A program made the position numbers and the translations under genes. A stretch of 64,000 bases of DNA from NCBI GenBank assembly GCA_021832345.1, contig JAKBKY010000001.1:148385-212384 (forward strand), written 5' to 3'. The DNA comes from a bacterium. Lineage in GTDB: Bacteria; Vulcanimicrobiota; Vulcanimicrobiia; Vulcanimicrobiales; Vulcanimicrobiaceae. The notes beneath the pieces were generated by a model. That model worked only from the letters and a program-made list of their open reading frames with translations. It had not been told where the DNA came from and did no database searches. Positions 9,511 to 56,517 of this stretch are shown piece by piece (position 1 is the first letter of the stretch; each line of letters starts with the position of its first letter).

Positions 9511-10518
9511 ATGCGTATCGGAATCAACGGTTTCGGCCGGATCGGCCGTAACTTTACTAAAGCGCTCATCGAGCGCCATCCGCACATCGAGATCGCGGCG
9601 GTCAATGATTTGACCGGCGCCGCAACGTGCGCACATCTGTTTAAATACGACAGCAACTACGGCCGGTATGCCGGAGAGGTCGGCGTCGACGGCGATACTC
9701 TCCAGGTCGACGATCGCCGCATCGCGGTGTTCGCCGAACGCGATCCCGGCAAGCTTCCCTGGCACGACCTCGGCTGCGACGTCGTCATCGAATCGACGGG
9801 AATCTTCACCGACGCCGCACGAGCGCGCGCGCACATCGACGGCGGCGGCGCCAAGAAAGTCATCATCTCCGCACCGGCCAAGGGCCAGGACATCACGATC
9901 GTTCTCGGCGTCAATGGCGATCGCTACGACCCGGCGCGCCACCACATCATCTCCAACGCATCGTGCACGACGAACTGCTTGGCGACGGCCGTCAAGCCGA
10001 TTGTCGATCGGCTCGGCTGGGTGAAGGGTTTCATGACGACCGTTCACTCCTACACCAACGATCAAGTGGTGCTCGACGGGCCGCATCCCGATCTCCGGCG
10101 AGCGCGCAATGCCGCAACGAACATCATCCCGACCTCGACCGGTGCGGCCAAAGCCCTCTATCTGACGATCCCGGAGGTGCAAGGCACCTTCGACGGATTC
10201 GCATTGCGGGTTCCGACGGCAACGGTCTCGATGATCTACTTGGTCGCGCAAGTGAAACACGCGACGACGAAAGACGAGCTGGATACGATCCTGCGCGAAG
10301 CGGCGGCAGGCGAGCTCCACGGCATCCTGCAGTTCACCGACGAGGAACTGGTCTCCAGCGACTTCAAAGGGTCTTCATACAGCTCGATCGTGGACGGCGG
10401 CCTAACCAATGCCAACGGTGATCTCATCCAGATCGGCGCCTGGTACGACAACGAGTGGGGCTACTCGTGCCGCCTGGCCGATCTCACCGCGATGGTCTTG
10501 GAAACCCTTCCAGCATAA
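9511..10518 (+). CDS. gap: Glyceraldehyde-3-phosphate dehydrogenase
   Basis: Phosphorylating, NAD-type GAPDH of glycolysis, 335 residues. The N-terminal Rossmann fingerprint is NGFGRIGRN, with Asp in VNDL at about 33 favouring NAD. The catalytic centre is SNASCTTNC (Cys152), with the catalytic His in the [10 protein letters not shown] segment about 27 residues later. The C-terminus carries [11 protein letters not shown]. First gene of a four-gene lower-glycolysis block. Confidence 0.97.
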
Positions 10519-48153: not shown

Positions 48154-49164
48154 TTAGACCTTCCGAGACAGGGCCCGGCGCACCGTCGCTTTGATCGCAG
48201 CGGTTCCCATGCCGTAGTGTTCGATGAGTTCGGTCGGTTCGCCCGACTCGCCAAACCTATCGTCCACGCCCACGAACTCGATGGGCACCGGATACCTCTG
48301 AGCAAGAATCTCTGCCACACGCGAGCCCATGCCGCCATGGACTTGGTGCTCTTCAACCGTGACCACCGCTCGGCACGTCTGCGCAGCGGCGACGATCGCC
48401 GGTTCATCCATCGGCTTGACCGTGTGGTTGTTGACGACGCGACACTCGATGCCGTCTTCCTTCGCTAACTCTGCGGCTGCCATCAAGGCATTGTAGACGA
48501 GGATGCCGCAGGCGATAATGGCCACGTCACCGCCTTCACGAAAGACCTGCGCTTTACCGATCTCAAACGGCGTCTCTTCCGTGGTGACGACGGCCGATTT
48601 CTCTCGAGCGAATCGCAGGTAGGCCGGCCCGAACATGGCAGCCAGGGCCAGCGTCGCCTTCTTGGTCTGCACGGCATCGCATGGCACGACGACGGTCATG
48701 TGAGGAATAACGCGCATGATCGCGATGTCTTCGATGGCTTGATGGGTTGCGCCGTCGGGGCCGACGGAGACGCCGGCATGGGCACCGGCGATCTTGACGT
48801 TGGTCTCGTTCAAGCACATGATCGTGCGCACTTGTTCCCAGGAGCGACCGGGATTGAACATCGCATAACTGGCAATGAACGGGATCTTCCCGACCGCTGC
48901 CAAGCCGCCGGCCATGGCCACCAGCAACTGTTCGGCTACGCCGATTTCAATGTACTGTTCGGGGCACGCCTCTTTGAAGGCGAGCATGCGCGTTGACTCC
49001 GAAAGGTCGGCGCAGATCGCCACCACGTTGCGATCCCGTTTGCCGGCCTCGACGAGCCCCTGCCCAAACCCGTTGCGCGTCGGGACCGATTCGAGCGCAG
49101 CGGCGTTCGTATAGTCAACCAAATGCATCGCAGTCGCGCTCTCCACCAGATTCACATTAGACAT
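48154..49164 (-). CDS. Transketolase, C-terminal subunit
   Basis: 336 residues covering the pyrimidine-binding and C-terminal domains of transketolase: ADLSESTRMLAF, GVAEQLLVAMAGGLA with the catalytic glutamate, and VEEHQVHGGMGSRVAE. Start ATG at 49164 overlaps the N-terminal-subunit stop by 8 nt. A split enzyme of this type is common in archaea and several bacterial phyla. Works with the next entry in the pentose phosphate pathway. Confidence 0.92.
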   Translation of the reverse strand: MSNVNLVESATAMHLVDYTNAAALESVPTRNGFGQGLVEAGKRDRNVVAICADLSESTRMLAFKEACPEQYIEIGVAEQLLVAMAGGLAAVGKIPFIASYAMFNPGRSWEQVRTIMCLNETNVKIAGAHAGVSVGPDGATHQAIEDIAIMRVIPHMTVVVPCDAVQTKKATLALAAMFGPAYLRFAREKSAVVTTEETPFEIGKAQVFREGGDVAIIACGILVYNALMAAAELAKEDGIECRVVNNHTVKPMDEPAIVAAAQTCRAVVTVEEHQVHGGMGSRVAEILAQRYPVPIEFVGVDDRFGESGEPTELIEHYGMGTAAIKATVRRALSRKV

Positions 49165-50017
49165 GGACGGCTCCGATCTGTTCGCGATCGGCCTGTAGCT
49201 GCGCCAAGGCAAGGGCCGCCTGTTCCTTGTTCGGCGGTTTCCCGTGCCATGTGTAGTCGCCTTCCATATACGAGACACCCTTGCCGGGAACCGTATTGGC
49301 GATGATGACGCTTGGTTTACCCTTCACCGTTTGCGCGCGCTCGACGGTGGCGATGATGGCCGCCATGTCGTTGCCGTCGCACTCGAAGACTTCCCAGTTA
49401 AAACTACGGTACTTATCGGCCAGCGGCTCAAGGGGCATGATCTCTTCCGTACTTCCGTCAATCTGGATGAAGTTCCGATCGATGAAACTGATGAGATTAT
49501 CCAGCTTGAACTTTCCGGCGGTCATCATCGCTTCCCAGTGCAAGCCGCATTGGTGCTCCGCATCCGATGTCACGACATAGACCCGCCAATCCTCGCGATC
49601 CAGCTTGCCGCCAAGAGCCATGCCGACGCCCTGGGCGAGACCTTCGCCGAGGGGCCCGGAGGTAGTCTCGACCGCCGGCAGACGCATCCGCTCGGGATGG
49701 CCTTGCAAACGCGTTCCGAGCCGGCGTAACGTCAGCAGCTCATCGACGGGGAAGTACCCCGCATAGGCCATCGCACTGTAACGCACCGGCGCGATGTGGC
49801 CGCATGAAAGCAGGAGCCGGTCGCGCTTTGCCCAGTCGGGGCGCTGCGGATCGTGCCGCAGAATGTGGAAGTAGAGCGCCGTGAAGACGTCGGCCATGTC
49901 CAGCGAACCGGCCGAATGGCCGGAGCCTGCCGCGACAAGCGAGCGGATGATTCCCTGGCGAACGTCGTTCGCAGCTAAACGCAGCTCGATCAAGCGCTGC
50001 GGCGTGAGTGATTGCAT
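49157..50017 (-). CDS. Transketolase, N-terminal (TPP-binding) subunit
   Basis: 286 residues forming the thiamine-pyrophosphate domain: GHSAGSLDMADVFTALYF, the GDGE-like metal site as SDAEHQCGLHWEA, and the Asn of IDRNFIQIDG. Upstream of and coupled to the C-terminal subunit. ATG start at 50017. Confidence 0.92.
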   Translation of the reverse strand: MQSLTPQRLIELRLAANDVRQGIIRSLVAAGSGHSAGSLDMADVFTALYFHILRHDPQRPDWAKRDRLLLSCGHIAPVRYSAMAYAGYFPVDELLTLRRLGTRLQGHPERMRLPAVETTSGPLGEGLAQGVGMALGGKLDREDWRVYVVTSDAEHQCGLHWEAMMTAGKFKLDNLISFIDRNFIQIDGSTEEIMPLEPLADKYRSFNWEVFECDGNDMAAIIATVERAQTVKGKPSVIIANTVPGKGVSYMEGDYTWHGKPPNKEQAALALAQLQADREQIGAVHV

Positions 50018-54905: not shown

Positions 54906-55292
54906 TCACGGGTCCCCGTGCAGATGTTCGGCAATTCGCGTGAAGAGCTCGCGCAGCACGACGGCCTCGTTATGCTCCGTATCCTTTGCGGCATACACGA
55001 GCGTGATCGTCTTCGCGCTCCTCGCGAGCTTGAGCAACTCTTCAATGGTTTCGCTCGCGTTGGCGCTTGCGAGTTCGGCGCGATACCGCTTGCAGAACTC
55101 GGTCCATCGAGCAGGATCGTGCGCAAACCATTGCCGTAACGTCGTGCTGGGCGCCAACGCCTTTGCCCATGTGTCGAGACGGAGATCCTCTTTCCTCACT
55201 CCGCGCGGCCAGAGGCGATCCACGAGAATCCGAAATCCGTCATCTCTGACCGGCTTGTCGTACGCGCGCTTGAGCTGGATCATCAACGTCAT
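54906..55292 (-). CDS. DUF488 family protein (YeaO-like)
   Basis: 128 residues with the family pattern: KRAYDKP near the N-terminus, RILVDRLWPRGV, a central WFAHDPARWTEFCKRYRAEL, and TLVYAAKDTEHNEAVVL at the C-terminus. Biochemical role unknown. The start at 55292 has GGAG six bases upstream; the frame runs further upstream to 55391 through low-quality sequence. Confidence 0.85.
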   Translation of the reverse strand: MTLMIQLKRAYDKPVRDDGFRILVDRLWPRGVRKEDLRLDTWAKALAPSTTLRQWFAHDPARWTEFCKRYRAELASANASETIEELLKLARSAKTITLVYAAKDTEHNEAVVLRELFTRIAEHLHGDP

Positions 55293-55457
55293 AACCATCT
55301 CCAAGTTGAACCCCGGCGCTGCACGCGACGGCGGTCGAGCGCGCGTTGCGAACAGCCGCCGCGAGGGCTGCGCCGGGCGCAGTCTTCGCATGCAATGCTG
55401 GAAAATCAGTGCGGTATCCTAGCCGCCACCGCCACGCGGCGCCGGCGTAGCTTCGAT

Positions 55458-55514
55458 CTAAAGCAGTACCTTGGCGATGAGAATACCTATGATGATGAGG
55501 ACCAATGCCCACAT
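55458..55514 (-). CDS. Possible 18-residue single-pass membrane microprotein
   Basis: ATG at 55514 opens a frame of 18 codons encoding MWALVLIIIGILIAKVLL and a TAG stop. AAAAGGGGG lies 8 bases upstream, a strong ribosome-binding site for so short a frame. Apart from Trp and one Lys the peptide is entirely hydrophobic, enough for one membrane span. It stands alone in the 276-nt gap between DUF488 and the secreted protein gene. No family is recognised and no homology could be tested. Confidence 0.4.
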   Translation of the reverse strand: MWALVLIIIGILIAKVLL

Positions 55515-55668
55515 GAGCGGAACCCCCTTTTCAAGCTGGCGGTAAAGTCATGGCGCTTATGTACCCCACAGGACGCCAAGCAAAACCAAACCGCAGGTCG
55601 CTCATTTTCCCCGAAAGCGGTGCAAGAAAAGCAGCGGGAATGTCCCAAAAGCCAGGGAAGTCTTCACG

Positions 55669-56517
55669 ATGTCGTCCGCTCCCTTCGCACCTCATGCACT
55701 CGCCGTCACGTTGCTATGTACATTCGTTAGCACTAGCCGCTTAACGGGCATCGCAGACGCGCAACCTGCCGCCCCCAGCGCAACCGCATCACCATCGCCG
55801 GGCAGTACCGTTGCGCTTGGCACGATCGAGGCCAAGTCCGTCCTTGCGATGAGGGCGCAGGCATCGCCGGCGCTCATCTCATACAATGAGACCTTCGTCC
55901 CGAAGGGTCTGGGGCTACGAATTCTCCAAGTCCACGAAAAGGCCGTCGTTCATGTCGCGTTTTCGTCGGCTACAACACCGCAGACCTTTCAGGTTACGCA
56001 GCATGCCGGGCGGAATACTACCGCTATCCTTGATACGCGCTCAAAGCAACGCTATGTCGCGCAACGCCCATTTTGGTCCGCAGTATGGTCAACGGTTCAT
56101 CACAGTAAACCGACCGCTTCGCCATCACCGGCTCAAACAACGGTGCTCCTCGGCGTCAGGAAGAAGATGATCGGCAGCCTTCTTGCCCCGAGCAGCAAGG
56201 ACTACACCGTTTCATTCGCTGGGACGCAGACTCTCGATGGCTCGTCGGTGTATCACCTTCACTTCGTCGCGCGGAAGGACGCCGCCGCGCATCCCCTTAC
56301 CGACGTTTTCATCGATACGCATTCGTATCTGGTTCGCAGAGCCGTCGCAGCCTTCAGCGAAAGCACCCCCGCCAGCGTGACCGGAACTCTGACGTTAAAC
56401 TTCGGCCAAGTCGACGGTTTTTGGTTGGTTCATTCCGGCAACGTTACCGCTACCGTACACGCGTTCTTTCGACAAGTCTCCGGGAGCGCGGAATTTTCGG
56501 TCTCGCGCTCGCTATGA
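55669..56517 (+). CDS. Secreted protein with LolA/outer-membrane-lipoprotein-sorting-like fold, unassigned
   Basis: 282 residues. The N-terminus has a signal-peptide-like hydrophobic stretch (about 8-25), then a Pro/Ala/Ser linker. The rest is beta-rich, with repeated patterns such as RKKMIGSLL, YTVSFAGTQTLDGSSVYHLHF and DVFIDTHSYLVRRAV. These resemble LolA/LppX-type half-barrels that carry lipids, but this is a guess from pattern. The 3' end overlaps the methyltransferase gene by 4 nt. Confidence 0.6.
   Translation: MSSAPFAPHALAVTLLCTFVSTSRLTGIADAQPAAPSATASPSPGSTVALGTIEAKSVLAMRAQASPALISYNETFVPKGLGLRILQVHEKAVVHVAFSSATTPQTFQVTQHAGRNTTAILDTRSKQRYVAQRPFWSAVWSTVHHSKPTASPSPAQTTVLLGVRKKMIGSLLAPSSKDYTVSFAGTQTLDGSSVYHLHFVARKDAAAHPLTDVFIDTHSYLVRRAVAAFSESTPASVTGTLTLNFGQVDGFWLVHSGNVTATVHAFFRQVSGSAEFSVSRSL

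What the first reader, a model, noticed from the sequence alone, without database searches (positions are those of the whole stretch)
55458..55514. Possible 18-residue membrane microprotein with a strong ribosome-binding site
AAAAGGGGG eight bases before an ATG that opens a purely hydrophobic 18-codon frame is more than expected for random sequence at this GC level, where Leu/Ile-rich runs are rare. Peptides like this include regulators of membrane transporters and type I toxins. No antisense RNA gene is evident.
Basis: partly seen in the sequence, partly recalled or inferred. Interest (0 to 1): 0.5.

Follow-up and report, generated by a model that had tools for sequence, protein, structure and literature searches.

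The report
Conserved 18-residue membrane microprotein gene
A tiny gene for an 18-amino-acid membrane peptide, overlooked because it is so short, is real: close copies with the same start, stop and key residues but different silent letters occur in a few related bacteria of the phylum Eremiobacterota; what it does is not known.

Summary
On the minus strand, 55514-55458 reads MWALVLIIIGILIAKVLL*, with AAAAGGGGG ending eight bases before the ATG. It is the only ORF of its kind in the window; 0 of 60 shuffles gave one. It is a real gene. Nine copies lie in 8 of 149 genomes of the phylum, in three genera. All nine have 18 codons with no indel, invariant M1 W2 G10 L12 A14 K15 V16 L18, and mostly silent differences. 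A scan of 84,980 species found the pattern only in Eremiobacterota-type MAGs. All nine have a GGGTA promoter-like motif 15-58 bases upstream. Five appear leaderless; four, the window's included, have a Shine-Dalgarno. Two end in a strong intrinsic terminator. A close relative lacks the whole unit at the same site. The window's copy is syntenic with one in another genus: both are divergent to the same secreted (LolA-like) protein gene. Other copies sit elsewhere, so this is not a leader peptide of one operon. Best reading: a lineage-restricted single-span membrane microprotein acting through a conserved GxxxA-K face, either on a membrane partner or by self-association. Type I toxin remains possible, but no antisense promoter motif was found. 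Function is untested.

The parts
55458..55514 (-). 18-codon microprotein ORF, MWALVLIIIGILIAKVLL*, TAG stop
55523..55531 (-). Shine-Dalgarno-like AAAAGGGGG, 8 bases before the ATG
55558..55566 (-). GGGTACATA, putative -10 promoter element; the same GGGTA motif lies 15-58 bases upstream of all nine copies
55531..55551 (-). possible leaderless upstream mini-frame MTLPPA*, its ATG 15 bases from the GGGTA motif; the G114 copy 2 leader has an ATG in the same place
   Evidence: significance unknown
55669..56517 (+). divergent neighbour: secreted 282-aa protein, weak LolA_like match; homologue (45%) is the divergent neighbour of G114 copy 2
54906..55298 (-). downstream DUF488-family gene; not a neighbour in the loci examined for the other copies

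Best explanation
It is a genuine gene for an 18-residue single-span membrane microprotein, found here only in a few genera of one Eremiobacterota family. It is transcribed alone from its own GGGTA-type promoter, leaderless in five copies and SD-led in four, and ends in an intrinsic terminator in at least two. The peptide most likely inserts as one short helix. The variable N-terminal half (residues 3-9) is filler. The nearly fixed C-terminal half G10xLxA14K15VxL18, with its small-xxx-small (GxxxA) face and one Lys near the cytoplasmic end, packs against a helix of a larger membrane protein, or against itself, and changes that protein's stability or activity. Shown here: gene, frame, conservation, recurrent promoter motif, terminators, gain or loss as a unit. 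Inferred: transcription, translation, membrane insertion, orientation, helix packing, a partner.
For: Nine copies, all exactly 18 codons, none with an indel. G118/G119 differ at 7 of 54 coding bases, all silent, while the flanks are 121/148 and 123/149 identical; random placement gives no amino-acid change in 0.01% of trials. G115/G117: 11 substitutions, 1 residue change. Window/G114 copy 2: 20 substitutions, 5 changes against 11.5 expected. Over four disjoint pairs, codon positions 1/2/3 change 8/2/30 times. GGGTA upstream 9 of 9. Perfect hairpin terminators after the G020 and G100 copies, G100 z -6.33. G099 lacks the roughly 330-bp promoter-ORF-terminator unit at the site where G100 has it. 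All 7 hits of the 84,980-species scan are these MAGs. Varied neighbourhoods argue for a product that acts in trans.
Against: No expression, localisation or partner data. 18 residues is short for a full span: W2 to K15 is about 20 A of helix. No neighbour is shared by all copies, so no partner is suggested. Present in only 8 of 99 family genomes and not found in relatives of the same genera (3 of 8 in g19, 1 of 3 in g21), so it is dispensable. Conserved small residues would also suit a self-associating toxic helix.
Confidence: 0.55

Rival explanations
1. Type I toxin of the Ibs kind: a very short hydrophobic helix that depolarises the membrane when an antisense RNA fails to silence it.
For: Same size class as IbsC, 19 residues (passages of PMC8309996); stand-alone, patchy, two copies in G114, different loci, gained or lost as a unit.
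Against: No GGGTA element on the antisense strand placed to read into the frame in any of 9 copies; no meaningful Rfam match (two sub-threshold snoRNA matches). Leaderless mRNAs leave no 5' UTR for the usual control. Near-fixed C-terminal residues with silent drift contrast with IbsC, which keeps toxicity after shortening to 15 residues or frameshifting (abstract and discussion of PMC7192591).
Confidence: 0.2
2. Leader peptide or upstream ORF whose translation controls the downstream gene (DUF488 in the window).
For: It precedes DUF488 by about 160 bases on the same strand with no obvious terminator between.
Against: Different genes lie downstream in other copies: LytR_cpsA_psr in G114 copy 1, convergent DUF885 in G118/G119. 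G020 and G100 have a terminator right after the stop. The protein, not codons or RNA structure, is conserved.
Confidence: 0.07
3. Subunit or assembly factor of a respiratory (cytochrome c-linked) membrane complex.
For: In four g19 genomes (G115, G117, G118, G119) a cbb3-type cytochrome c gene lies upstream on the same strand.
Against: Window, G020, G100 and both G114 copies lack this neighbour. G113 has a related (50%) cytochrome c without the frame. The micro-ORF has its own promoter motif rather than sharing an operon.
Confidence: 0.12
4. Chance hydrophobic frame in an intergenic region.
For: Antisense of acidic-looking codons can give Leu/Ile runs.
Against: as above.
Confidence: 0.02

Closest known systems
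Ibs toxins of the Ibs/Sib type I toxin-antitoxin systems (E. coli)
   Same: 18-19-residue, almost wholly hydrophobic single helix; stand-alone and repeated in a genome (the 18-residue members and Ibs copy number are recalled; IbsC at 19 residues is).
   Different: No antisense RNA signal found; far tighter sequence conservation of the C-terminal half; a Lys near the C end; leaderless copies; no sequence relation claimed.
Single-span regulatory or assembly microproteins such as KdpF, CydX, MgtR, AcrZ (recalled)
   Same: Tiny single-span membrane peptide under purifying selection.
   Different: Those are 29 residues or longer (recalled) and several lie beside their partner; here 18 residues, no constant neighbour, and no Pfam or NCBIfam match.

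Membership tests
Bacterial single-span membrane microprotein (general kind) | short frame under protein-level purifying selection | tested here: met
   9 of 9 intact; silent-site bias in three of four disjoint pairs with P at or below 0.0001, fourth pair 2 of 2 silent
Bacterial single-span membrane microprotein (general kind) | one hydrophobic segment | tested here: met
   17 of 18 residues apolar in each copy by reading; no topology program or structure run
Bacterial single-span membrane microprotein (general kind) | translated and membrane-located | not testable with these tools
   needs ribosome profiling or tagging
Type I toxin (Ibs-like) | overlapping or trans antisense RNA antitoxin | tested here: inconclusive
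   0 of 9 with an antisense GGGTA positioned to read in; loose TANNNT matches occur in 8 of 9 and mean little; no Rfam RNA near threshold
Type I toxin (Ibs-like) | toxic when overproduced | not testable with these tools
   none
Leader peptide | constant regulated gene downstream | tested here: not met
   differing downstream genes, terminator in G020 and G100
Known Pfam or NCBIfam small-protein families | profile match | tested here: not met
   none for the window's 29-aa stop-to-stop frame (both libraries) or three other copies' frames of 33-52 aa (NCBIfam only); HMM tests are weak at this length

The most novel reading that the evidence does not exclude
A new lineage-specific protein family near the lower size limit for a dedicated gene product: an 18-residue GxxxA-K helix carried as a promoter-ORF-terminator unit that is gained and lost between loci and genera and is often translated from a leaderless mRNA. 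It would work as an obligate self-assembling or partner-completing transmembrane helix, or as a toxin without an antisense RNA.
Probability: 0.2. Interest if true: 0.7.

Novelty: new member of a known kind. Interest (0 to 1): 0.5.

Why it matters
It shows that an 18-codon gene can be recognised with confidence from genome comparison alone, in a phylum with very few cultures. It gives a minimal, strongly constrained transmembrane sequence (W2, GxxxA, K15) whose role can be tested directly. The two family libraries tried have no family for it.

Tried and rejected
Direct DNA orthology at the window's site: G020 shares 93% DNA with window 55554-56508 but diverges just upstream of the frame, and carries integrase-like coding sequence there instead (by eye). 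G020's copy is elsewhere.

Looser search (up to 3 mismatches) gave 7 rows besides the nine copies: G060, G061, G064, G068 twice, G048, G140. I looked at all seven. All are longer frames (46 aa or more, up to 411 aa), four of them apparently one 116-129-aa protein family (name recalled: Sbp/DUF1290). The reversed control pattern gave 4 hits, so they were dropped. Profile hits below the nine copies (12 rows, best E 0.02) lie inside frames of 177 aa or more and were dropped.

No copies found in viral contigs, plasmids or phages; the last two are weak at this length. Rfam gave two sub-threshold snoRNA matches on the + strand, taken as chance. The sigma-70 consensus scan found no promoter. Search beside the secreted-protein homologues of G070, G032 and G018 and the G113 cytochrome c found no further copy. 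No structure prediction was made: 18 residues is below the tool's minimum.

Full report
WHAT IS THERE. The frame lies on the minus strand: ATG at 55514, TAG ending at 55458, MWALVLIIIGILIAKVLL. AAAAGGGGG at 55531-55523 is eight bases upstream. It is the only ATG frame of 14-30 codons in the window with at least 94% apolar residues; none occurred in 60 dinucleotide-preserving shuffles. The frame sits between a DUF488-family gene downstream on the same strand and a divergent gene for a 282-aa secreted protein.

IT IS A GENE. A protein search of 60 relatives (the window's own genome included) gave one hit besides itself, MWFFVALILGILIAKVLL in G020, with its own AGGAG. A degenerate pattern that did not specify residue 2 found 8 copies in 149 phylum genomes, all beginning ATGTGG, with 0 hits of the reversed pattern. 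Allowing mismatches added a second copy in G114. A profile of seven distinct peptides found the same nine copies, E 5.9e-9 to 4.2e-7, in 8 of 99 family genomes: g1 1 of 1, g21 2 of 3, g19 5 of 8. The same pattern with a stop codon, run over 84,980 species, hit 7 records: four titled Candidatus Eremiobacterota and three titled only 'bacterium'. Their contig lengths equal those of the seven phylum contigs already found, so nothing outside this group was hit. The scan needs exact G10, A14 and K15, so distant relatives could be missed; a pattern of the N-terminal 12 codons alone found no more in the family.

PROTEIN-LEVEL SELECTION. All nine have 18 codons, no indel, a stop at codon 19 (TAA 5, TAG 2, TGA 2) and invariant M1 W2 G10 L12 A14 K15 V16 L18. 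G118 and G119 encode the same peptide but differ at 7 of 54 bases, while flanks are 82-83% identical; random placement of 7 changes leaves the peptide intact in 0.01% of trials. G115/G117: 11 changes, 1 replacement (none of 20,000 trials as few). Window/G114 copy 2: 20 changes, 5 replacements (0.01%). G020/G100: 2 changes, both silent (6%, not significant alone). Over these four disjoint pairs, changes by codon position are 8, 2 and 30 (chi-square P 8e-8).

EXPRESSION SIGNALS. Every copy has GGGTA on the sense strand within 60 bases: at -15 or -16 in five g19 copies, and at -48 to -58 in the window, G020, G100 and G114 copy 2. The five near ones have no SD and look leaderless. The other four have SD-like sequences. 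In the sequences on hand, GGGTATA is followed by ATG or GTG mostly at 14-18 bases; there were only 11 sites and five are these copies. Other genes with the motif placed alike include the window's transketolase-like frame at 49157-50017 (name recalled from its sequence) and a signal-peptide-like frame in L098. So I read it as a general promoter element of this lineage, by inference; in the window alone the pattern GGGTAYNWA is not enriched (3 sites, 0.97 expected), a gene-start enrichment test in the window gave nothing (2 sites, 1.5 expected), and the sigma-70 scan found nothing. Downstream of G020 and G100 is a perfect GC hairpin with a T run; G100's region folds at z -6.33, G020's at only -1.40. 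The window and the g19 copies show no such terminator (G114 copy 2 was not folded).

WHERE IT SITS. The window's copy and G114 copy 2 are both divergent to homologous secreted proteins (45% identity). Four g19 copies follow a cbb3-type cytochrome c gene on the same strand: directly in G118 and G119, after a gap in G115, and beyond a chloride-channel gene in G117. G114 copy 1 precedes a LytR_cpsA_psr gene. G020 and G100 copies are divergent to a sugar-nucleotide dehydratase gene, with tsf (name recalled from its sequence) about 1.1 kb downstream in G100. G099, whose EF-Ts is 99% identical to G100's, matches G100 on both sides but lacks about 330 bp holding promoter motif, frame and terminator, with about 22 bp in its place. 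So the gene comes or goes as a unit. Whether G099 lost it or the others gained it is not settled. By EF-Ts identity to G100 (70-74%), g1 and g19 are no closer to g21 than several genera without copies, so the spread is patchy. Some genomes are incomplete, so single absences are weak.

HOW IT PROBABLY WORKS. Residues 3-9 vary among apolar residues; residues 10-18 hardly vary. G10 and A14 form a GxxxA spacing, a helix-packing motif (recalled), beside Lys15, with Trp2 near the other end. That pattern suits a short transmembrane helix packing on a partner or itself. The positive-inside rule (recalled) would put K15 on the cytoplasmic side. This is inference; no fold was computed. The changing neighbours suggest that the target is encoded elsewhere.

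RIVALS. A type I toxin fits size and patchiness: IbsC has 19 residues (passages read, PMC8309996). But antisense GGGTA placed to read in occurs in 0 of 9, and IbsC tolerates shortening and frameshifts, unlike the tight constraint here. A leader peptide is unlikely given differing downstream genes and the terminators. A respiratory role rests only on the four g19 neighbourhoods.

NOVELTY. No Pfam or NCBIfam family matched; such tests are weak at 29-52 aa. Paper searches for Eremiobacterota with 'small protein' (3 papers), with 'leaderless' (1 paper), and for microprotein terms (10, of which 7 listed) showed no title or abstract start on this peptide; only listings were seen. A large small-protein catalogue predicts frames from 30 nt (PMC11364881, passages), so the sequence may be listed there unnamed; I could not check.

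Noticed in passing
window 49157-50017 (-), L098, and GGGTA sites: GGGTATAAG about 14-16 bases before start codons suggests that leaderless transcription from a GGGTATA-type -10 element is common in this family of bacteria.
   Followed up: partly
L121 (G099) against L045 (G100) 1014-1345: Precise absence of the promoter-ORF-terminator unit between the dehydratase gene and tsf in a very close relative.
   Followed up: yes
L019 near base 9838 (G020), against window 55554: 93% DNA identity between two genera over 955 bases ends just upstream of the micro-ORF, where G020 has integrase-like coding sequence, suggesting an insertion or exchange.
   Followed up: partly
window 55531-55551 (-) and L043 leader: In both SD-led syntenic copies an ATG sits where a leaderless transcript would begin (MTLPPA* in the window; a 16-codon frame overlapping the micro-ORF in G114), both with TTACCG after it.
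   Followed up: no
window 55669-56517: The secreted protein has relatives in 31 of 99 family genomes, several with more than one copy; weak LolA_like similarity.
   Followed up: no
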